Below, in pieces: positions 2,529 through 11,388 of a stretch of DNA of 59,603 nucleotides. Position 1 is the stretch's first letter, and each line of letters begins with the position of its first letter. The DNA comes from Chromatiaceae bacterium. Its GTDB lineage: Bacteria; Pseudomonadota; Gammaproteobacteria; Chromatiales; Chromatiaceae. Made by a program: the position numbers and the translations under genes. The stretch lies in contig JACDZG010000035.1 in NCBI GenBank assembly GCA_013426805.1, positions 1-59,603 of the forward strand, written 5' to 3'. Under the pieces are notes generated by a model. The model saw only the letters and a list, made by a program, of their open reading frames with translations, ran no database searches and was not told where the DNA came from.

Positions 2529-3369
2529 GCGATTTTCGGCAGGCGTGTACATAAGGATCAGATGGTTAGATACCATCTAGGAGTGGTTATCAATGGGGCC
2601 ATGTTAAAGATGGGTTAGGGCGTAGGTGGGACGGCTTTTCCCATAAAAAGCGCAAAAAAGCGCTGATTGCCGGCATTTTCGCTCAAAGAGTGGCTCTCTG
2701 GGATCTCAGTAGGTCAACATATCGATAAACAACATCATTTTATAGCGGAAGCGAGGGCGGCATAGGGTCGCATGTCGAGCCACATCAGCAAGCTCTGGAG
2801 CGATTACTGATCTGCCGAATCTTCATATCAAGGGTTTACGCTATTCTCAGACGCTGCCATAGAGCCATTTTCTTTTTGTGTAATCGCCCTATAATGCTGT
2901 TTTTAGTAACTACTCAGGTCTATCCAAGCGCATGAAATATCGAGATATTGACTTGGCGCGACGGACTCTCGACGGACTACGGCAACAGGGCGACGCTATG
3001 AACATCAATACGTTACAAAGTTGTTGCGATGAGTGTGCGAAAGTCGAAACTCGCTAACAAACTGTACTAATTGACGTTTTCACGAAATCGCCTACCTGAG
3101 TAGTTACTGTTTTTATAGACTTACTCGACCTACTGAGTTCCCAGAGAGCCCAAAGAGTGATCTTATCTATCTGATTCTAAATGATAATAATATTTTCCCG
3201 GTCTCATTTGCGCTGTGACGAAAAATGCGCAGCATCTTGTGTCTGCAAGACCTCCTGTGACCACAACATCTGGGTACAGCGCAAATGCCTCTTAGAGTGG
3301 GCACCTTTTCATGCACTGCCAAGTGCGGTACAGTTCGATTTCGGCATCCGCTATCGGCATCGCCTACAC
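2529..3369. other. AT-rich gap without a clear gene; contains a MITE-like element
   Basis: This gap separates the insertion sequence from the conflict operon and is clearly poorer in GC than the genes around it. The only organised structure I see is the inverted-repeat element at 2905-3108, listed separately. The last 260 bases must hold the promoter of the operon, but no convincing -35/-10 pair stands out. A reading frame extends upstream of the first operon gene to 3181, but its extra 63 residues are Cys-rich and do not look like protein. Confidence 0.5.
2905..3108. mobile_element. 204-bp MITE-like element (15-bp TIR, 6-bp TSD)
   Basis: AGTAACTACTCAGGT at 2905-2919 and its exact reverse complement at 3094-3108 form perfect 15-bp terminal inverted repeats. 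The hexamer GTTTTT lies immediately outside both ends (2899-2904 and 3109-3114), as expected for a target duplication. The interior cannot encode a transposase; its only frame is a 41-codon ORF (2932-3057, beginning MKYRDIDLARRTLDGL). This is the structure of a non-autonomous element mobilised in trans. The parent family is not identified, and the 41-residue frame may be the truncated start of an ancestral gene. Confidence 0.7.
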
Positions 3370-3567
3370 ATGACCACCACTCGGCGTCCGAAGGTGAAGA
3401 CCGCCACCCTGACAGTTCGGCTTGATCCGAGAATCAAAGCCGCTGCAGAGGCAGCAGCCCAGCATGAGCACCGAAGTCTCACCAACCTCCTTGATCTGTT
3501 GATCGTCAACCACTGCCTGACGCTGGGCCTGAATCCTGAACACTTTGCCAAGGAGCCCCGCCAATGA
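3370..3567 (+). CDS. small ribbon-helix-helix-like DNA-binding protein, first gene of conflict operon
   Basis: This 65-residue protein has a basic N-terminus (MTTTRRPKVK), then a strand-like segment TATLTVRLDPRIKAAAEAAA, then two helices (HEHRSLTNLLDLLIVNHCL). That is the MetJ/Arc/CopG ribbon-helix-helix layout, with SLTNLL resembling the helix-turn-helix pivot. The start at 3370 is the first ATG that gives a compact domain; no good Shine-Dalgarno sequence is visible. Its stop overlaps the next gene's ATG (ATGA). A small repressor ahead of a toxic or defensive operon would make it a plausible autoregulator, which is inference from position. Confidence 0.7.
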   Translation: MTTTRRPKVKTATLTVRLDPRIKAAAEAAAQHEHRSLTNLLDLLIVNHCLTLGLNPEHFAKEPRQ

Positions 3568-4136
3568 CCAAGACGCGGCAGACGACCGCCGCCCCGGAGA
3601 TCCGCTTCTACCGCGCCAACGAGAACCCTTATGGCGCCTTAAGTAATTTGTTCCCCCGCCCAATCGAATTCGAGGAGAGAAACTATCCCACGTCTGAACA
3701 CGCCTATCAGGCTGGCAAGGCCCGCAAACCTGCCGTTCGCGAATGGATCCTCAATGCACCTACGCCCGCGTTGGCTGCAATGGCAGCCCACGGTCTCTAC
3801 GTATGGGACGTTGTGCCGGACTGGGCGCAGATCAAGTTCGATCGCATGCGTGCCGTGCTTCGGGCGAAGTTCGATCAGCATGATGACCTACGCGAGTTGC
3901 TGTTGTCGACCGGCAATGCCAGGCTAGTGGAGGCCGGGACCGTCAACAACGCCGTCAACCGGCTGTGGGGCGAGGTGGATGGCAAGGGAGATAACATGCT
4001 CGGCGTGATGCTGATGGAACTGCGGGCATTCTATGCTCAGCCGCTGGCGAGGACTGCCGATCCCGATACGTTCACGATAGACAAAGCGCCCGACAGCGAT
4101 AATGCTGCCTCCAAGTTGGTGCTTGCGACGGCATGA
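3564..4136 (+). CDS. NADAR-family (YbiA-like) N-glycosidase
   Basis: This 190-residue protein is almost entirely a NADAR domain. IRFYRANENPYGALSNLFP (residues about 13-31) is the family's substrate-loop signature, followed by YPTSEHAYQAGKA, the WDVVPDWAQIKFDRMRAVLRAKF block, and the C-terminal NRLWGEVDGKGDNMLGVMLM. Members such as E. coli YbiA hydrolyse N-glycosidic bonds of ribosyl-phosphate compounds (riboflavin intermediates), and others remove ADP-ribose from guanine bases. The gene overlaps its neighbours by 4 bp on both sides. In this operon it could remove or recycle a ribosylated product; that role is inferred. About 50 residues after the domain core are uncharacterised. Confidence 0.88.
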   Translation: MTKTRQTTAAPEIRFYRANENPYGALSNLFPRPIEFEERNYPTSEHAYQAGKARKPAVREWILNAPTPALAAMAAHGLYVWDVVPDWAQIKFDRMRAVLRAKFDQHDDLRELLLSTGNARLVEAGTVNNAVNRLWGEVDGKGDNMLGVMLMELRAFYAQPLARTADPDTFTIDKAPDSDNAASKLVLATA

Positions 4137-6106
4137 AAAATCTGCAGACGGCTGCCAGCCACTACGAGGATGAACTGACGCAGCTATGGAATAGCTATGC
4201 GGCTGCGTCTTCCGCCGACATCGATGCGCTGAAACTCGCGATTGCCAGCGCTGCCGAGTCCAGCATGATCGGCGTAGGGTCTGGTGGCTCCTTCACGGTG
4301 GCGTCGCTGCTGTGCAGCCTGCACGAAGCCTATACGGGACGGGTCTCCCGTCCTTCAACTCCTTTGGAAATCATTTGCCGGCCTGCACTGGCCTCGTCGA
4401 GTCCGGTGTTTCTCGTGTCGGCGGAAGGTAAGAACCCTGACATCGTGGAGGCCCTTGATCGGGTACGGCGCTTCAGTTCGCGGACGGTCCATGTGTTGAC
4501 CAATCGGCAGGACAGCCCCTTGATGGAGCATGTCGGAGCGTTGCCGGGCGTGAAGCCCTACGTGTTCGAGTTGGCCAAGAAAGACGGTTACTTGGCGACT
4601 AACAGCCTGCTGCTTGATGCGGTACTAGTCGCGAGGGCGTACGGCGAGCTCAACGGTCGCCACCCGCCGATGCCCTTGGAGTTTGAGGCATTACGAGTTA
4701 GTGATCAGACGGTCGATGAATGGCTGAAAGCGGCGCAGCCGTTCATCTCCGAGGCCGTGCAGCGAGGCGCACTGACCGTTATCTACTCGCCTCTGCTCAA
4801 AGCCATTGCGACGGACCTGGAGTCTAAGCTCTCCGAAGGCGCCTTGCTGCACACCCAACTGGCCGACCTACGTTCGTATGCACACGGCAGGCACCTCTGG
4901 CTGGCTGATCGACCTCAGGATTGCACCGTCCTTGCGTTGGTCGAGCCTACCCTAAACGGACTCTGGGAAGGTATGCGCAGCAAGTTTCCGAGCGGCATTC
5001 CTACGCTGACTATGCCCCTGTCCGGCGCCGACCCCGTCCACCTGATCGTAGGGCTAGTCGCGGAAATGCATTTCGTGGCAGCGGTTAGCCGCGAGCTGGG
5101 CAAGGATCCCGGACGGCCCGATGTGCCGAGCTACGGGCGGGAAATCCACAATGCGAACCTGCGGGACGTGATCCCCTTGCCACAGGCGGCAGGCCCGGCC
5201 GAGGAGCAGTCGAAGTACGAGGTGCTCGGAGCCCATTGGCCTTCGCAGCGCGATCACGGGACGATGCGCCGAGCGGCACTGGCATTCGCAGACACCATCC
5301 GGGCGCGGCGTTTCAAGGCGGTAGTCTTCGACTACGATGGCACTCTATGCAGTTCGCAAAGCAAGGACAACCCTCCACCGCCTGATGTCGTGAAGCATCT
5401 CATCCGACTTGTCCACGCCGGCATCATCGTCGGAATCGCTTCGGGACGGGGCGGCTCGATCCAGACCTGCCTAGAGGAGGTTATGCCAAAGGACGTCTTG
5501 CCCAAGATCCAGCTGGGCCTGTACAACGGAGGCTGGATCTCCCCGGCGAATACGCCACCGGAGTCGTCGCAAGAGACGAGCGAGTTCCTCAGTCATGTGA
5601 CACGCATCGTGGTGCGTTTGAAGTCGCTGGGCGTGCCCATCCTTTCCCATCGCACCACGCATCCCTACCAGGTGAGCGTACGGTTTCACGAAGGCCTCGC
5701 GACTGATGCCATGTGGTTCGTGATCGCCGACGCATTGCGCCAGGCCGGGTTGGATTTGTCGACCTTGGTGCGTAGCAAGCACTCTGTTGACATCCTCGCC
5801 AAGGGCGTGAGCAAGTCACTCCTCGTCGCGGACATTATCCAGAAAGACAAAGTCGATCCCTACGAGGTCCTGACCATGGGTGATCAGGGTGCCTGGCCCG
5901 GCAACGATGCGGCCCTGCTCGAACACCGATTCTCTTTGAGTGTCGATATGCCGTCTCGTCGTTTGGACCGAGGATGGAAGCTAGCGCCGGCCGAGAAGCG
6001 CGACATCGATGCCACGCTATGGTACCTTGAACACATGAAAGAAGAAGAGGGTAGCGTATTCCGCATGAACCTCCCTCAAGCCAAAGGAAGCGACGCCGGT
6101 GCGTGA
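4133..6106 (+). CDS. SIS-domain / HAD-phosphatase fusion protein
   Basis: This 657-residue protein has two recognisable parts. Residues about 45-170 form a SIS phosphosugar-binding fold: IGVGSGGSFTVASLL is the glycine-rich loop and VSAEGKNPDIVEAL matches the SxxGxxxD/E turn. Residues about 395-610 form a Cof-type HAD phosphatase: VVFDYDGTLCSS (motif I), GIASGRGGS (motif II), KGVSKS (motif III lysine) and TMGDQGAWPGNDAALL (motif IV). All catalytic residues are present. Residues 170-390 look like a second SIS-like Rossmann lobe without clear motifs. Both domains handle phosphorylated sugars. The start ATG overlaps the NADAR stop. The fusion is unusual outside conflict operons. Confidence 0.82.
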   Translation: MKNLQTAASHYEDELTQLWNSYAAASSADIDALKLAIASAAESSMIGVGSGGSFTVASLLCSLHEAYTGRVSRPSTPLEIICRPALASSSPVFLVSAEGKNPDIVEALDRVRRFSSRTVHVLTNRQDSPLMEHVGALPGVKPYVFELAKKDGYLATNSLLLDAVLVARAYGELNGRHPPMPLEFEALRVSDQTVDEWLKAAQPFISEAVQRGALTVIYSPLLKAIATDLESKLSEGALLHTQLADLRSYAHGRHLWLADRPQDCTVLALVEPTLNGLWEGMRSKFPSGIPTLTMPLSGADPVHLIVGLVAEMHFVAAVSRELGKDPGRPDVPSYGREIHNANLRDVIPLPQAAGPAEEQSKYEVLGAHWPSQRDHGTMRRAALAFADTIRARRFKAVVFDYDGTLCSSQSKDNPPPPDVVKHLIRLVHAGIIVGIASGRGGSIQTCLEEVMPKDVLPKIQLGLYNGGWISPANTPPESSQETSEFLSHVTRIVVRLKSLGVPILSHRTTHPYQVSVRFHEGLATDAMWFVIADALRQAGLDLSTLVRSKHSVDILAKGVSKSLLVADIIQKDKVDPYEVLTMGDQGAWPGNDAALLEHRFSLSVDMPSRRLDRGWKLAPAEKRDIDATLWYLEHMKEEEGSVFRMNLPQAKGSDAGA

Positions 6107-7205
6107 CCAGAATGCCGCTAAGTTGCTGGCGAAGGTGATGGGGTGGGAGGACTTGGAGCAGGTGTCGCAGGTCCGGCCTACCCTCCAGTTGCTTGCCGAT
6201 TTCAAGTATGATCACTACCAACGCTTCGGTCCGGGGCGCCGCTTCATCGAAAGCCTGGCGCTGTGGCTCCACCAATTCGAACAGCAAGATCGGCAAACCG
6301 CACTGACGTTGATTCTCGACCACTTGGTGTTCATCTCCGACGCCGAACTCTTACACCTCGTGGGTACTGCCTATCGGGACTGGATCGTGCAGGAACGCAT
6401 GCGCCTTGTATCTGAGGAGTATGAGATCCCTTCCTTCAGGGTCCAAGAGATCGCTCGCCACCGGCGTTTCGAACAGTTGCGTTTGACATCGCTCTACCTC
6501 GGTTTGAGCGACGGCGCACGTACCAATGAGCTTCGCCGCGCCAGCGATGGGGAGATCGGCAATGAGCAGATCTGGCAGGCCTACGAGTTGGGTGACGAGA
6601 AGGCTAAGGACATGCTCGATGACCTCGGCATGTCATTGAAGAGCGCGGGCTTCGCGTCTGATGGTCCCCACTTCAATCTGATCTGGTTGCTGGACGACTT
6701 CTCGGGGAGCGGCAACACCTACATTCGATACGACGGTGAGGAACGCAGGTTCAAGGGCAAGCTGCCGAAGATCTACCAGCGGCTTCACCAAAGAGGCATG
6801 GTGGACCCTTCGCACTACGAAGTGTTCCTGATGTTGTATACCGCAACGCGACAGGCCGTCGACCACATAGAGTATTGGTCCGAGCGATTTACAACAGAAC
6901 ACGGATTCAAACCATTGCAGGTGCGTGTCCTTTGCCCTATAGAGCCCGAGTCCTCCTTGTCTCGGAGCACCAACCCTGAGTTGCGAGCCCTGCTTGCAAA
7001 TCCTGCCTACTGTAACAACAGCGTGGTCGACAAGCACTTTCGTGTCGGCGGAACCAACGATGCCAGTCTCGGCTTCGCTGGCTGTGCGTTGCCGGTGGTG
7101 CTAGGTCACAACACACCGAACAACTCGGTGTTTCTGCTGTGGGGACCAGAGCATTTAGAGCCGCATGGCCTGTTCCCTCGCGTCAGCCGTCATCGGGCGT
7201 TCTGA
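6099..7205 (+). CDS. phosphoribosyltransferase-like protein (conflict-system type)
   Basis: This 368-residue protein begins with GTG at 6099, overlapping the preceding gene by 8 bp. The key element is LLDDFSGSGNTY at residues about 197-208, which matches the PRPP-binding loop of phosphoribosyltransferases (two acidic residues, then a small-residue turn ending in Thr). A predicted helical N-terminal region (1-120) precedes it, and a Rossmann-like core follows (VFLMLYTATRQAVDHIEYW). I link it to the PRTase-like families reported next to AAA ATPases in computational surveys of prokaryotic conflict systems. No substrate is known to me. The C-terminus (GHNTPNNSVFLLWG) resembles the last strand of the PRTase fold. 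Confidence 0.72.
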   Translation: MRDQNAAKLLAKVMGWEDLEQVSQVRPTLQLLADFKYDHYQRFGPGRRFIESLALWLHQFEQQDRQTALTLILDHLVFISDAELLHLVGTAYRDWIVQERMRLVSEEYEIPSFRVQEIARHRRFEQLRLTSLYLGLSDGARTNELRRASDGEIGNEQIWQAYELGDEKAKDMLDDLGMSLKSAGFASDGPHFNLIWLLDDFSGSGNTYIRYDGEERRFKGKLPKIYQRLHQRGMVDPSHYEVFLMLYTATRQAVDHIEYWSERFTTEHGFKPLQVRVLCPIEPESSLSRSTNPELRALLANPAYCNNSVVDKHFRVGGTNDASLGFAGCALPVVLGHNTPNNSVFLLWGPEHLEPHGLFPRVSRHRAF

Positions 7206-9118
7206 TGGCCTACAATGCCAACCCTTTCTTGGAGCGAATGTCCGAACGCACGACCTCGGACACGGAATTCGTACGGCTGTTTTCCCCCAAGATTCTTGAG
7301 AAGCTGGCCGAGGATGCCTTCGACGGTGCAGTGCATGTCTTCCGGAGCGCGCCCGGCGCTGGCAGGACCACGCTGCTACGCGCCTTCACACCGCCAGCAT
7401 TGCGCGCGTTCTGGAACTCCCGCAATCGGCCAGAGTTGTCGGAGTCTTTCCAGAAGCTGCGCAATCGTGGTTTGCTGACAGATGGCGATAGCCCTCAACT
7501 GGTCGGCGTTTACCTTAGCTGCGCCTCCGGTTATGCCGATCTGCCTTCCAACGAAGGCTTGGAGCAGGAAGGGCTGTTTCGGGCGTTGCTGGATTGCCGG
7601 ATCGTGCTGCGCACGCTGCGCAGCCTAGGTGCCCTTCTGGGGTTCAGTGGGCCGGAGCAACTGGCCGAGGTATCGCTGGACCATGCTACCGTGCCCCGCC
7701 TGCAAGGCATACCAGTACTTAAGAACGCGTTGGATCTCGCTAAGTGGGCCGAAGATCACGAGCAGCGTGTCTACGCGCAGCTCGACACCTTCATGGGATC
7801 TGCGGGCACGAACTTCCCCGTTCACGTCCGCTTCGAGGGGGTTCTCTGGTTGCAGTCGATCCAATTCGTCCATGAAGGCCGGACCGTTGGTGGTCAGCGG
7901 CTGCTGATGGTCGACGACATGCATAAGCTGCGACGTAAACAACGCGCCTTGCTGCTCGACGAGCTGACGGTAATGCGCCCCCGAATCCCGGTCTGGCTGG
8001 CGGAGCGCACCGTTGCGCTAGGAACGGAGCTGCTGTCGCAGGGGGCTCGCGAAGGTCGGGACCTGCGCGAATACAATCTAGATAAAATGTGGAGCGATCC
8101 TAGGGGGATGAACCAATTCGTGTCCTATGCTCAGAACATTTTGGATCGCCGCATGAAGAACCAGGACGTGGTTCCGGTGGGCTCGTTCACACAATGCCTG
8201 CGCGACAAGCTGGTCAGCAGCGAAGTGCGCGGTCAAGTCGCCGATGGCATCCAACGATTCCGAAATGAGGTGCAGCGTCACCAGTCGAAGGTGCGCTATA
8301 CGCAATGGTTGGCACGGGCGGACCAGTACACCGTCGACCAGAACTTGGAGTCGCTGCTCGAACTTTATGTCACGCGCATCCTACTGGTTCGCGATGAGTC
8401 TAAGCGCCAGTTGTCCCTGGACCTGACCTTGACCGAGGAAGAACTTGAGGACCGTGACAGTTCTCAGGTCCGCGGGGCCGCGGAGCTTTTCATGCACGAT
8501 GAATTAGGCATTCCATACTACTTCGGTTTCGATCGCTTATGCGTGATGGCGACGAGCAACGTTGAGGAACTGCTGGCGTTGGCCGCGGCACTTTACGTCG
8601 GCTTGCAGGCCAAGCAGGTGTTGCGCAAGTCCGAACCGGTCCTGTCGCCTGTCGAGCAGGACAAGCTGCTGCGCGAGGCAGCCAGTCGCAAGCGCGAGTT
8701 CATACCTAAGTCTCATACTGAAGGTACCCGGGCGCAACGTCTGTTGGACTCCATCGGGGCGTTTTGCTACGACCAGACCTTCGCGCCCAACGCTCCCTAC
8801 GCGCCCGGCGTTACCGGTGTGCGTCTTTCCAGCTGGGAACTGGCGAAGCTCACCGGACAGGTCAAGCCGCTCGGTTACAGCATGACGCTACAGCGGGTAC
8901 TGGCGGAATGTGTCGCGGAGAACCTTCTGGTCCAGCGCGAAAGCCAGGCCACGGGTTCGCGTGACAGCGGGACTGTTTTCTATTTGAATCGCTCGTTGTG
9001 CACTCACTATGGCCTGCCTTTGCAAATGGGGGGATGGCGGGACGTGTCGGTCGGAGACTTGATGAAGTGGATGGAACGTCGCCTCACGCCCAGTCGGAAA
9101 AGCCTGGCGGCGACCTAG
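7205..9118 (+). CDS. ORC/CDC6-like AAA+ ATPase
   Basis: This 637-residue AAA+ protein has Walker A at residues about 47-58 (SAPGAGRTTLLR) and Walker B at about 232-242 (RLLMVDDMHKL). The next strand, IPVWLAERTVAL, suits a sensor-1 position. The C-terminal 150 residues (from about 510) read as a winged-helix-like DNA-binding region. The overall plan resembles ORC/CDC6-type ATPases seen in conflict operons, so it may sense or remodel DNA or gate the enzymes encoded upstream; this is inference. The ATG is nested in the preceding stop (TGATG), which implies translational coupling and roughly matched expression. Confidence 0.75.
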   Translation: MAYNANPFLERMSERTTSDTEFVRLFSPKILEKLAEDAFDGAVHVFRSAPGAGRTTLLRAFTPPALRAFWNSRNRPELSESFQKLRNRGLLTDGDSPQLVGVYLSCASGYADLPSNEGLEQEGLFRALLDCRIVLRTLRSLGALLGFSGPEQLAEVSLDHATVPRLQGIPVLKNALDLAKWAEDHEQRVYAQLDTFMGSAGTNFPVHVRFEGVLWLQSIQFVHEGRTVGGQRLLMVDDMHKLRRKQRALLLDELTVMRPRIPVWLAERTVALGTELLSQGAREGRDLREYNLDKMWSDPRGMNQFVSYAQNILDRRMKNQDVVPVGSFTQCLRDKLVSSEVRGQVADGIQRFRNEVQRHQSKVRYTQWLARADQYTVDQNLESLLELYVTRILLVRDESKRQLSLDLTLTEEELEDRDSSQVRGAAELFMHDELGIPYYFGFDRLCVMATSNVEELLALAAALYVGLQAKQVLRKSEPVLSPVEQDKLLREAASRKREFIPKSHTEGTRAQRLLDSIGAFCYDQTFAPNAPYAPGVTGVRLSSWELAKLTGQVKPLGYSMTLQRVLAECVAENLLVQRESQATGSRDSGTVFYLNRSLCTHYGLPLQMGGWRDVSVGDLMKWMERRLTPSRKSLAAT

Positions 9119-9119
9119 C

Positions 9120-10292
9120 ATGCTTTGGGATCACTACGTATTTCGTCGCGGCGACGCAGTCCATGAGCTGTGGGACAGCTTGCTGAAGGACCGTCCGGTT
9201 GATCTGCTGTACATCGCGGGTCGTGGATTCGACGTTCGAGCGGAAACGGTGATGCGTGAGTTCGTCGCGGGCCAGCAGGGCGCCGAGCGCCGGACTGTAA
9301 GCGCGACGCTGCTGCTACTGGGATTACATGACTATGAACTGGACGAGGGCTTGAAACAGCTCACCGAGGAGAATGCCACAGCGCTAGAAGCGGTGTTCTC
9401 ATCGCTTGGCAGAACGGAGATGGTCACGGTCGCGACGCGCGACGGAGAGGACGAGGCGAGTGCCAGCGATATGTTGCGTCAGATCGTCAAGGCAGTGCTC
9501 GACGAAGTCGATGGCAAGACGGATATCATCCTTGATGTCAGCTCTTTACCTCGGGCGACGTATCTCGCACTGCTCACCAATATCCTGCAGAAGCTCGTCC
9601 CCAGTAAGGTGGCCACCCAGGGCGTCGTACATCCACTATACGCCAGCGGTGTGAACTTCCAGGTGTTTGTCGCCGAAGACGCCGAGTTGGATGGACATAT
9701 CCGTGCGGACGACCCGAGCAACGACCTTGTAAACATCCCTGGTTTCTTCGCCGCGTGGCAAGCCGAGAGCGTTCAGGACTGGCCTCTCGTTTGGTTCCCG
9801 GTCTTGGGCGAAGGGCGCGTGAACCAGTTGCAGAAAATCGCAGGCTCAATTCCAATGGAAGCCGAGGTATGTCCGGTTGTACCCCACCCTTCCAAGGACC
9901 CCCGGCGTGCGGATCGCCTGCTCGTGGAGTATCGGAACCCTCTGTTCGACAGCCGCAGCACTCCGACATCGAATATCCTCTATGCCAATGAGTCCCAGCC
10001 GTTCGAGGCCTACCGCCAACTCTTGGGGGCGATGCAGCGCTACCAGAGCAGTATGTCTATCCTCGGAGGTTGCCGCTTGGTATTGAGCCCGCTAGGCAGC
10101 AAGCTCATTACCCTTGGCAGCGGCTTGGCATGTTTTGAAATGCGGCCCGCCGACTTGACAGCCAAATATGGAGTCGCCATCCCCCATGCTGAGCCAAGGC
10201 GCTATGTCGCATCCGCGGATTCGCTACGCCAATCGAAGGCCGAGATCTACGTATTGCTCTTGACTGGCGAAGCCTATGGGACGCAAGACTAA
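9120..10292 (+). CDS. uncharacterised Rossmann-like protein, last gene of conflict operon
   Basis: I do not recognise a named family in this 390-residue protein. Residues about 30-42 read DLLYIAGRGFDVR, a strand ending in a glycine-rich loop. Residues about 135-145 read DIILDVSSLPR followed by a long helix, a strand-loop-helix resembling nucleotide-binding Rossmannoid and CARF-like folds. The second half (about 200-390) has alternating strands and helices without motifs. It starts one base after the ATPase stop and ends the operon; coding density then collapses into pseudogenes. It could be a sensor or effector subunit. No membrane segment or signal peptide is visible. Confidence 0.6.
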   Translation: MLWDHYVFRRGDAVHELWDSLLKDRPVDLLYIAGRGFDVRAETVMREFVAGQQGAERRTVSATLLLLGLHDYELDEGLKQLTEENATALEAVFSSLGRTEMVTVATRDGEDEASASDMLRQIVKAVLDEVDGKTDIILDVSSLPRATYLALLTNILQKLVPSKVATQGVVHPLYASGVNFQVFVAEDAELDGHIRADDPSNDLVNIPGFFAAWQAESVQDWPLVWFPVLGEGRVNQLQKIAGSIPMEAEVCPVVPHPSKDPRRADRLLVEYRNPLFDSRSTPTSNILYANESQPFEAYRQLLGAMQRYQSSMSILGGCRLVLSPLGSKLITLGSGLACFEMRPADLTAKYGVAIPHAEPRRYVASADSLRQSKAEIYVLLLTGEAYGTQD

Positions 10293-10338
10293 GCGATGGC
10301 TGTGTCGCGGTCACGATTCATCCGACGCGTCTCCTGTG

Positions 10339-10800: not shown

Positions 10801-10971
10801 TTGTATGCCGGGGACCGGACATCGGGGACCGGGTACCGGGGCAACCGTTGGTGCTCGGGACGGTACCGCGGATCGGCATCCCGACCGACTGGCCTTGTCG
10901 TGCCGCGGCGCGGTCGCCATGTCCAGGCGTGCGGTCGAATTGACGACCTCGCATTGCCCAGGGTGCCCGCT

Positions 10972-11388
10972 ATGACTGATCAAACCGCTGACGAACGCCT
11001 GGCCCTGACCCGGCGCATCATGGACCTGCTCACGCTCTGGGCACTGCCCGCGCAGGCGATTGTTGACATTCTGGACTTGCCGGATACCGTGAAAGCCCGC
11101 CAGGTGGGGCGCTTTCGCGAGGCCGAGCCCTTGCCGGACGACCCGCGGGTGAATCGTCGGATCGCCTATCTGGTGCGGATCGAGGAGGCGCTGCACACCT
11201 ATTTTCCGCGTAATCCGGAACAGCGCAACCTTTGGGTCAGGCGGGGGAACAGGCGGTTTGGCCGCCGTGCACCCATCGCCGTCATGGTGGAGGATGGCGA
11301 GAGCGGCATGATCGCGGTGCTGTCGCACCTGGACTGTACCTTTGCCTGGGACCTGACCGGCTCCAAATCCGAGTACCAGATGACCTGA
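10972..11388 (+). CDS. MbcA/ParS/Xre-type (DUF2384) antitoxin-like protein, orphan
   Basis: This 138-residue protein (start ATG 10972) has an N-terminal helical part resembling the Xre-like helix-turn-helix of this group (MDLLTLWALPAQAIVDILDL, residues about 16-35). Its C-terminal part LWVRRGNRRFGRRAPIAVMVEDG (about 91-113) matches the toxin-binding signature, where W-(L/V)-R, an N and a P precede a short helix. In the usual RES/Xre modules such antitoxins sit beside a RES-domain NAD-degrading toxin. No such gene is adjacent: upstream is the arylsulfatase relic and downstream is convergent apaH. It may be a stranded antitoxin or a regulator in its own right. Confidence 0.6.
   Translation: MTDQTADERLALTRRIMDLLTLWALPAQAIVDILDLPDTVKARQVGRFREAEPLPDDPRVNRRIAYLVRIEEALHTYFPRNPEQRNLWVRRGNRRFGRRAPIAVMVEDGESGMIAVLSHLDCTFAWDLTGSKSEYQMT

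What the first reader, a model, noticed from the sequence alone, without database searches (positions are those of the whole stretch)
3370..10292. Six-gene coupled operon: RHH, NADAR, SIS-HAD, PRTase-like, ORC/CDC6-like AAA, unknown Rossmann protein
All five junctions overlap or abut (ATGA, ATGA, 8-bp overlap, TGATG, 1-bp gap), so the six proteins are made together. Four of them belong to families that bind or cut ribosyl-phosphate compounds (NADAR N-glycosidase, SIS, HAD phosphatase, PRTase). They are joined by an AAA+ ATPase with a possible DNA-binding end and a small repressor-like protein. The location next to an insertion sequence, a MITE and defence-gene debris is that of a defence island. 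Individual families have been noted computationally in conflict systems; I know of no experimental description of this complete set.
Basis: partly seen in the sequence, partly recalled or inferred. Interest (0 to 1): 0.92.

Follow-up and report, generated by a model that had tools for sequence, protein, structure and literature searches.

The report
Phosphoribosyltransferase defence operon with CARF sensor
A block of six linked bacterial genes looks like an untested virus-defence system in which a signal sensor and an ATP-driven switch control an enzyme that attaches or removes a sugar phosphate, with helper enzymes that handle the same kind of sugar.

Summary
The six coupled genes are real. 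The unknown sixth protein is CARF6, a sensor-type family of CRISPR/defence (PADLOC E 2.6e-124). The operon reads RHH – NADAR – double-SIS/HAD – PRTase-CE – ORC/CDC6-like AAA – CARF6.

The last four travel together in 63 of the 64 fetched loci with enough flank (80 fetched of 335 relatives). NADAR is lineage-specific: the 64 loci carry NADAR (25), a PfkB sugar kinase (30) or both (9), never neither; NADAR-only rows form one clade.

PRTase-CE is the effector family of type III-A retrons. ORC/CDC6+CARF6 pairs also occur with HD-CE or calcineurin-like genes. So this is the PRTase form of a computationally known kind with exchangeable effectors, plus sugar-phosphate enzymes. Ten library searches gave no experiment on this gene set.

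Best reading: CARF6 and the AAA switch gate a phosphoribosyl-chemistry effector; SIS-HAD with NADAR or PfkB process its products. Defence and substrate are inferred. This copy has arginine at the Walker A lysine (K in 86 of 87 rows) and may be impaired.

The parts
3370..3567 (+). RHH repressor-like protein, 65 aa; autoregulator by inference
   Evidence: Weak Pfam matches to TacA1/HicB/FitA RHH, all below cut-off; relatives upstream of NADAR in 22 of the 33 other NADAR-type loci examined; dN/dS 0.07 versus L013
3564..4136 (+). NADAR, YbiA subfamily, 190 aa; E45, K52 and E123 at the positions of the catalytic residues
   Evidence: PF08719 E 1.4e-24; aligned to YbiA 2b3w E 4.2e-22; residue roles from PMC11543638 passages, E123 placed by my own reading of the YbiA alignment; the three columns are the same in 49 of 49 rows
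4133..6106 (+). double-SIS plus Cof-type HAD phosphatase fusion, 657 aa; SIS E230, E235, HGRH 251-254; HAD D400/D402, K561, D584, D592
   Evidence: PF08282, TIGR01484; SIS/GlcN6P deaminase structures E 5.3e-5; these columns kept in 86-88 of 88 rows; numbering
6099..7205 (+). PRTase-CE, 368 aa, PRPP motif DDFSGSGNT at 199
   Evidence: PF24390 E 1.8e-15; PADLOC PRTase_III-A 9.4e-13; model pLDDT 93.5; Foldseek: uracil PRTases among the first ranks, probability up to 0.99, E 0.008 or worse
7205..9118 (+). ORC/CDC6-like AAA+ ATPase, 637 aa; Walker A reads APGAGRTT (R, not K), Walker B-type LLMVDD
   Evidence: PF24389 E 8e-23; 86 of 87 family rows have K at that column; codon AGG at 7364-7366
9120..10292 (+). 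CARF6 sensor-type protein, 390 aa
   Evidence: PADLOC PDLC01910 CARF6 E 2.6e-124 over residues 1-386; model pLDDT 93.7; Foldseek to Csa3 6w11 and 6wxq (probability 1.00, rmsd 5-6) and Csm6 9w3u (0.99, rmsd 19.6)

Best explanation
A horizontally moving anti-invader operon. Shown: a fixed unit of SIS-HAD, PRTase-CE, ORC/CDC6-like AAA and CARF6 with conserved catalytic motifs. Inferred: CARF6 binds an infection-linked nucleotide signal; with the AAA+ protein as an ATP-dependent switch it releases the PRTase-CE effector, which makes or breaks N-glycosidic phosphoribosyl bonds (using PRPP or a nucleotide) and so drains the nucleotide pool or modifies nucleic acid, stopping growth or the phage. Inferred: SIS-HAD, together with NADAR in this lineage or PfkB kinase in others, removes or recycles the ribosyl-phosphate products and so limits self-damage. 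Inferred: the RHH protein represses the operon.
For: Co-travel: of 64 loci with enough flank (80 fetched of 335 relatives) SIS-HAD 64, AAA 63, CARF6 63. Plasmid searches with four proteins: 17 records hold CARF6, PRTase and SIS-HAD, each of which also has one record of its own, and all 11 AAA records are among the 17. Sensor-effector logic: ORC/CDC6+CARF6 has HD-CE (L181, L183), a calcineurin-like gene (L182) or PRTase-CE (L119) as the gene upstream. PRTase-CE as effector: the 18 over-cut-off places in 398 genomes are this system (5, own included), beside an RT related to that of L121 (9), between Hma-like genes (2), PRTase-ORC-CARF6-methylase (1) and near an OLD-like ATPase and a GTPase with a dynamin-type match (1); PRTase as the usual effector of type III-A retrons is in print (PMC12548924, passages). 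Shared chemistry: NADARs cut ribosyl N-glycosidic bonds (PMC11543638, PMC11125620, passages); the PfkB proteins score weakly against ribose-1-phosphate kinase in 5 of 5 tested and fructokinase in 4 of 5, all far below cut-offs; NADAR neighbours PRTase-CE in the Hma-like loci too (L116, L117). In L009 two PRTase-AAA-CARF6 sets flank one SIS-HAD/PfkB/NADAR set. The NADAR also matches NCBIfam's anti-phage DS32_2 model at 6.9e-17, below its cut-off.
Against: No phage, toxicity or enzyme data. CARF ligand unknown; none of the six proteins matches a nucleotide cyclase. SIS-HAD is as constant as the trio, which fits an output role at least as well as a protective one. The trio also occurs without SIS-HAD (L119). 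Defence enrichment of the flanks is suggestive only: 148 PADLOC families matched among 109 flank ORFs against 6 among 109 random ORFs, but many families can match one protein and proteins were not counted. Foldseek matches are partial: CARF structures have E 4e-4 to 3e-3, with KaiC and chloride transporters (probability up to 0.96) above them by E-value; the PRTase has no match under 0.001. The window's AAA lacks the Walker A lysine. PfkB genes elsewhere in the host genome could serve in trans.
Confidence: 0.45

Rival explanations
1. Signal or toxin synthesis: SIS-HAD, PRTase and NADAR/PfkB together make a small modified nucleoside or sugar nucleotide on infection, which CARF6 senses or which blocks phage replication; the AAA protein is the downstream actor. 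This is the logic proposed for the Ter system.
For: SIS-HAD is in 64 of 64 loci with enough flank, and isomerase, kinase, phosphatase and PRTase form a plausible pathway; the Ter system is described as PRTases plus HAD phosphoesterases making a nucleotide signal (PMC7824862, passage).
Against: My profiles found no SIS-HAD, PfkB or NADAR in the nine RT-linked PRTase-CE loci; the PRTase-ORC-CARF6 trio exists without SIS-HAD (L119); ORC+CARF6 pairs with HD-CE or calcineurin-like genes, which are hydrolase families.
Confidence: 0.25
2. PRTase-CE and NADAR are a toxin and antitoxin pair in the DarT/NADAR manner, and the remaining genes only regulate them.
For: NADARs are antitoxins of DarT1 and YarT (PMC11543638, PMC11125620, passages); NADAR neighbours PRTase-CE here and in two Hma-like loci of one genus.
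Against: NADAR is absent from 30 of 64 loci with enough flank, and where both NADAR and PfkB occur NADAR lies on the strand opposite to the PRTase in 9 of 9 of these; none was seen in the nine RT-linked loci.
Confidence: 0.12
3. A metabolic or salvage module, or a plasmid-maintenance device, not a defence system.
For: Four domains are of metabolic families; 18 plasmid records carry the PRTase; genes right of the operon include an ApaG-domain gene and a metallophosphatase that I read as ApaH (ApaH recalled).
Against: CARF6 and ORC-CDC6-like partners; RT-linked and Hma-like contexts of PRTase-CE; patchy spread over many phyla with operon-sized boundaries.
Confidence: 0.1
4. This particular copy is impaired because its AAA has arginine in place of the Walker A lysine (not exclusive of the others).
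For: The only such row of 87.
Against: Purifying selection on all six genes including the AAA (dN/dS 0.07 versus L013 and L014); the other 29 of 30 near-invariant AAA columns are kept. It could also be a base-call error in a draft genome, not testable here.
Confidence: 0.4

Closest known systems
CARF6 / ORC-CDC6-like / exchangeable effector loci (Pfam PF24389, PF24390, PF24391; PADLOC CARF6 models)
   Same: ORC-CDC6-like AAA followed directly by CARF6, with an effector-type gene upstream (HD-CE in L181 and L183, calcineurin-like in L182, PRTase-CE in L119)
   Different: Here the effector is PRTase-CE with a SIS-HAD fusion and NADAR and/or PfkB; no DNA methylase in the operon
Type III-A retron
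   Same: PRTase-CE effector family (PADLOC PRTase_III-A)
   Different: No reverse transcriptase: L121's RT finds nothing in the window at E 1e-3; CARF6 and AAA are present instead
DarT-NADAR and YarT-YbiA toxin-antitoxin pairs
   Same: NADAR with E, K and E at the catalytic positions, YbiA subfamily
   Different: No ADP-ribosyltransferase among the six proteins; a PRTase is present instead
Ter stress/defence system
   Same: Mix of PRTase and HAD phosphatase with ligand sensors (as described in PMC7824862, passage)
   Different: No Ter family matched among the six proteins in Pfam or NCBIfam; the sensor is CARF6
CARF-HAD phosphatase effectors (Chp) of type III-A CRISPR
   Same: CARF sensing linked with a HAD phosphatase (PMC12715507, abstract)
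   Different: Separate proteins, Cof-type HAD fused to SIS; CRISPR genes were not sought in full

Membership tests
CARF6/ORC-CDC6-like effector loci | CARF6-family protein | tested here: met
   PDLC01910 E 2.6e-124
CARF6/ORC-CDC6-like effector loci | ORC-CDC6-like AAA directly upstream of CARF6 | tested here: met
   PF24389 81.4 bits, cut-off 27; 1-base gap
CARF6/ORC-CDC6-like effector loci | Effector-type gene directly upstream of the AAA | tested here: met
   PRTase-CE 58 bits, cut-off 27
CARF6/ORC-CDC6-like effector loci | CARF6 binds a cyclic oligonucleotide or other nucleotide | not testable with these tools
   Partial fold match to Csa3 bound to cA4; ligand unknown
Active AAA+ ATPase (a question about this copy, not about the locus type) | Walker A lysine | tested here: not met
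   R in this copy; K in the other 86 of 87 rows
PRTase-CE family | Profile match over the curated cut-off and PRPP motif | tested here: met
   D199, D200, F201, S204 and G205 invariant in the 49 rows (D199 nearly invariant in the 57 rows)
Type III-A retron | Adjacent retron reverse transcriptase | tested here: not met
   No match of L121's RT in the window's ORFs of 80 aa or more
DarT/YarT-NADAR pair | ADP-ribosyltransferase toxin gene next to NADAR | tested here: not met
   None of the six proteins matches one
NADAR, YbiA subfamily | Catalytic E, K and YbiA-type E | tested here: met
   E45, K52, E123; columns 49 of 49; residue roles from PMC11543638; E123 placed by my own reading of the alignment
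Type III CRISPR accessory | Cas10 and CRISPR array nearby | not tested
   No Cas family among the 25 of 81 PADLOC families listed for 41 window ORFs; the other 56 were not shown and arrays were not sought

The most novel reading that the evidence does not exclude
PRTase-CE is a PRPP-dependent counterpart of DarT: on activation it puts 5-phosphoribosyl on an exocyclic amine of a nucleobase in nucleic acid or in free nucleotides. NADAR hydrolyses that N-glycosylamine; where the adduct has rearranged to a ketosamine phosphate, the PfkB kinase and the double-SIS enzyme (same superfamilies as the fructoselysine kinase FrlD and deglycase FrlB, recalled) remove it, and HAD clears the sugar phosphate. 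This would explain why NADAR and PfkB replace each other next to an invariant SIS-HAD, and would be a nucleic-acid or nucleotide phosphoribosylation immune reaction with its own repair enzymes.
Probability: 0.1. Interest if true: 0.92.

Novelty: new variant of a known kind. Interest (0 to 1): 0.6.

Why it matters
It links three loose ends: CARF6 sensors outside CRISPR, the PRTase effector of type III-A retrons whose chemistry is not known to me, and NADAR enzymes with no assigned target in most genomes. The rule 'NADAR or PfkB beside SIS-HAD' (64 of 64 loci with enough flank) narrows the unknown chemistry to ribosyl-phosphate compounds and gives a compact, clonable set of genes to test it. If the defence reading holds it is a broadly spread, untested immune system.

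Tried and rejected
Retron: rejected, no RT in the window. DarT-type pair: no ART among the six proteins. CRISPR accessory: no Cas gene in the part of the list shown. Phage-encoded origin: tblastn of the PRTase in 50,697 phage records, no match; 4 relatives among 25 candidates in viral contigs, not checked for being true viruses. Sequence searches of solved structures with the CARF6, PRTase and AAA profiles gave no credible homologue (AAA alone); one PfkB query gave none at 1e-5. The promoter and terminator scan was no better than shuffles.

Papers: ten searches gave no experimental account of this gene set; the library holds only open-licence papers. Three papers tried by identifier are not held. 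DefensePredictor (PMC13092281; section 6 and passages) names NADAR-domain proteins among its classes and a PRTase in the legend for validated E. coli systems; whether that PRTase is of this family I did not see, so related single families may already be tested.

Flank test: 109 of 423 flank ORFs drawn at random from 72 of 80 loci (8 near-copies dropped) against 109 of 207 control ORFs; the controls come from other genomes. Sub-cut-off family hits were not followed: PF24390 has 36 of 398 genomes at E 0.001, 18 over the cut-off, and rings below the cut-off in 4 of 14 control genomes; PF24389 has 83 and 14, of which G362 was not extended.
Full report
OBSERVATION. Pfam gives NADAR (1.4e-24), HAD (Hydrolase_3, 7.3e-9) behind a SIS region, PRTase-CE PF24390 (1.8e-15) and ORC-CDC6-like PF24389 (8e-23); the RHH protein has only matches below cut-offs. 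The sixth protein has no Pfam match, but PADLOC's CARF6 model PDLC01910 covers residues 1-386 at E 2.6e-124, and the PRTase matches PADLOC 'PRTase_III-A' at 9.4e-13. The CARF6 protein has no second copy in the host genome.

OPERON AS A UNIT. DNA similarity with close relatives (73-84% identity) starts at window positions 3299-3385 and ends at 10238-10305 for L012-L017 and L092; L044 starts at 3461; L002, L020 and L030 align only in part. So the six-gene block, and not its neighbours, is what is shared. dN/dS against L013 is 0.06-0.13 for all six genes; in L012 the RHH gene has a stop in the aligned frame.

CO-TRAVEL. A PRTase-centred scan found 335 relatives, of which the best 80 were returned. 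Of these, 64 have at least 2.7 kb upstream and 4.3 kb downstream: SIS-HAD in 64, AAA in 63, CARF6 in 63; the one miss, L030, has a cut-short PRTase match. Over all 80, contig ends included: SIS-HAD 78, AAA 79, CARF6 73, neither NADAR nor PfkB 5. In 60 of the 64, SIS-HAD, PRTase, AAA and CARF6 lie in that order on one strand (in one with the AAA split); in three SIS-HAD is on the other strand (maps). Separate plasmid searches: CARF6 18 records, PRTase 18, SIS-HAD 18, with 17 common to all three; each has one record of its own (CP053441, CP121643, CP140871); all 11 AAA records are within the 17. I read maps for 10 of the 17. All queries come from one operon, so this tests linkage only.

NADAR OR PfkB. 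The 64 loci carry NADAR (25), PfkB (30) or both (9); none lacks both. In the PRTase tree of 92 rows, all 33 NADAR-only rows and two rows with cut-off flanks form one clade (support 100/100) on a long branch. So the NADAR-only state looks like one lineage-wide change; the rule 'never neither' is the more telling fact. Tree labels name Pseudomonadota, Acidobacteriota, Thermodesulfobacteriota, Chloroflexota, Nitrospirota, Cyanobacteriota, Armatimonadota, Bacillota, Verrucomicrobiota, Planctomycetota, Bacteroidota and Myxococcota; a Paenarthrobacter plasmid adds Actinomycetota. Many are metagenome bins and may be misassigned. RHH relatives precede NADAR in 22 of the 33 other NADAR-type loci examined. 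The window has no PfkB match, but the host genome has PfkB genes elsewhere.

ACTIVE SITES (numbering). SIS-HAD: GSGGS, the two SIS glutamates, HGRH and HAD D, D, K, D, D in 84-88 of 88 rows. NADAR: catalytic-type E, K and E in 49 of 49. PfkB: a GxGD-type motif in 56 of 56 (motif name recalled). AAA: Walker A K in 86 of 87, the window being the exception. PRTase: D199, D200, F201, S204 and G205 invariant in 49 rows; D199 is nearly invariant in 57 rows.

STRUCTURES. CARF6 model: mean pLDDT 93.7. In Foldseek, Csa3 (6w11, 6wxq; probability 1.00, rmsd 5-6) and Csm6 (9w3u; 0.99, rmsd 19.6) lead by probability but not by E-value; KaiC and cation-chloride transporters (up to 0.96) rank above with large rmsd. 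PRTase model: pLDDT 93.5; ranks 2-7 are uracil PRTases (Fur1p by recall) and rank 1, TT1426, is a PRTase by recall; all E values are above 0.001.

WIDER FAMILY. PF24390 has 18 places over its cut-off in 398 genomes of the phylum. I extended the 17 besides the window's: 5 with the window are this system; 9 have, next to the PRTase, a reverse transcriptase related to that of L121 (L120-L128; PADLOC retron labels tested for L121 only); 2 have PRTase and NADAR between HmaA- and HmaB-like genes (L116 scanned; L117 by layout and NADAR profile; one genus); 1 is PRTase-ORC-CARF6-methylase without SIS-HAD (L119); 1 lies near an OLD-like ATPase and a GTPase with a dynamin-type match (L118). PMC12548924 (passages) calls the PRTase the typical effector of type III retrons. 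ORC-CDC6-like is over its cut-off in 14 of 398 genomes: 4 are this system (own, G384, G187, G026), 1 is L119, L181 and L183 are HD-CE–ORC–CARF6, L182 is calcineurin-like–ORC–CARF6 and L188 has the same layout (not scanned), L184-L187 gave no CARF6 with my profiles, and G362 was not looked at. My profiles also missed the CARF6 of L182 that PADLOC found, so those four blanks mean little. The ORC+CARF6 pair thus recurs as a control module with exchangeable effectors, and this operon is its PRTase form with added sugar-phosphate enzymes. In L009 two PRTase-AAA-CARF6 sets (one PRTase broken) share one SIS-HAD/PfkB/NADAR set.

SURROUNDINGS. Left: a DDE transposase (654-2462, minus) and nested inverted repeats (24 nt at 2692/3127; 15 nt perfect at 2905/3094), fitting an IS and a MITE. 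Right: an Xre/MbcA-type antitoxin match below cut-off (10801-11385), a metallophosphatase read as ApaH (name recalled) and an ApaG-domain gene. The rest of the window gives PADLOC matches to Dsr2, type I RM and a type II methylase among 41 ORFs; the output does not say which. Flanks of relatives match 148 PADLOC families (GajA, BrxL, AbiEii, type I RM among the 25 shown) against 6 for random ORFs, but proteins were not counted. Defence-island placement is plausible, not proven.

MECHANISM. NADARs hydrolyse guanine-ADP-ribose (PMC11543638 and PMC11125620, passages); the riboflavin intermediates cut by YbiA carry a phosphoribosylamino group (recalled). The PfkB proteins score weakly against ribose-1-phosphate kinase (5 of 5), fructokinase (4 of 5) and fructoselysine 6-kinase (2 of 5). 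A double-SIS enzyme, a sugar kinase, a Cof-type phosphatase and a ribosyl N-glycosidase around a PRTase point to ribosyl-phosphate chemistry. I favour a gated effector plus clearing enzymes over a synthesis pathway because PRTase-CE occurs beside RTs without the sugar enzymes and the trio occurs without them (L119); the constancy of SIS-HAD keeps the synthesis reading alive. The steps from signal to damage are inference.

KNOWN OR NEW. The families carry neighbouring Pfam numbers (PF24389-PF24391) and PADLOC names, so the control trio is known computationally; I infer, and did not read, their source. Ten searches of an open-licence library gave no experimental paper on this gene set; a PRTase and NADAR proteins figure among E. 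coli systems in PMC13092281 (section 6 and passages), relation to these not seen. I file it as a new variant of a known kind.

Noticed in passing
window 7364-7366: The AAA gene encodes arginine at the Walker A lysine position, alone among 87 family rows; natural loss, tuning or base-call error.
   Followed up: partly
window, outside 3150-10300: PADLOC matches to Dsr2 (2 ORFs), type I methyltransferase (2 ORFs), specificity subunit and a type II methyltransferase among 41 ORFs; two hits each may mean split genes.
   Followed up: no
window 2692-3150: Nested inverted repeats (24 nt, 96%; 15 nt perfect) next to a DDE transposase: MITE-like element left of the operon.
   Followed up: partly
L116 3659-12364 and L117 4878-13584: PRTase-CE and NADAR genes between HmaA-like helicase and HmaB-like methylase (L116 scanned, L117 same layout).
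   Followed up: partly
L181 5621-10724; L183 533-9010: HD-CE, ORC/CDC6-like and CARF6 loci with a C5 methylase and, in L183, PDC-M33 genes.
   Followed up: partly
L182 7352-11867: Calcineurin-like phosphoesterase, ORC/CDC6-like and CARF6 locus.
   Followed up: partly
L009 26-12116; L011 4334-17103: Two divergent PRTase-AAA(-CARF6) sets around one SIS-HAD/PfkB/NADAR set on rhizobial plasmids.
   Followed up: no
L003 2320-3195: A gene annotated nucleoside 2-deoxyribosyltransferase lies upstream of the operon on a Sphingomonas plasmid; NDT-like proteins are type II-A retron effectors (PMC12548924 legend).
   Followed up: no
L121 7816-8688: SLATT_2 gene directly upstream of a retron-type PRTase-CE and RT.
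   Followed up: no
L012 171-380: RHH gene of the closest relative has a stop in the aligned frame.
   Followed up: no
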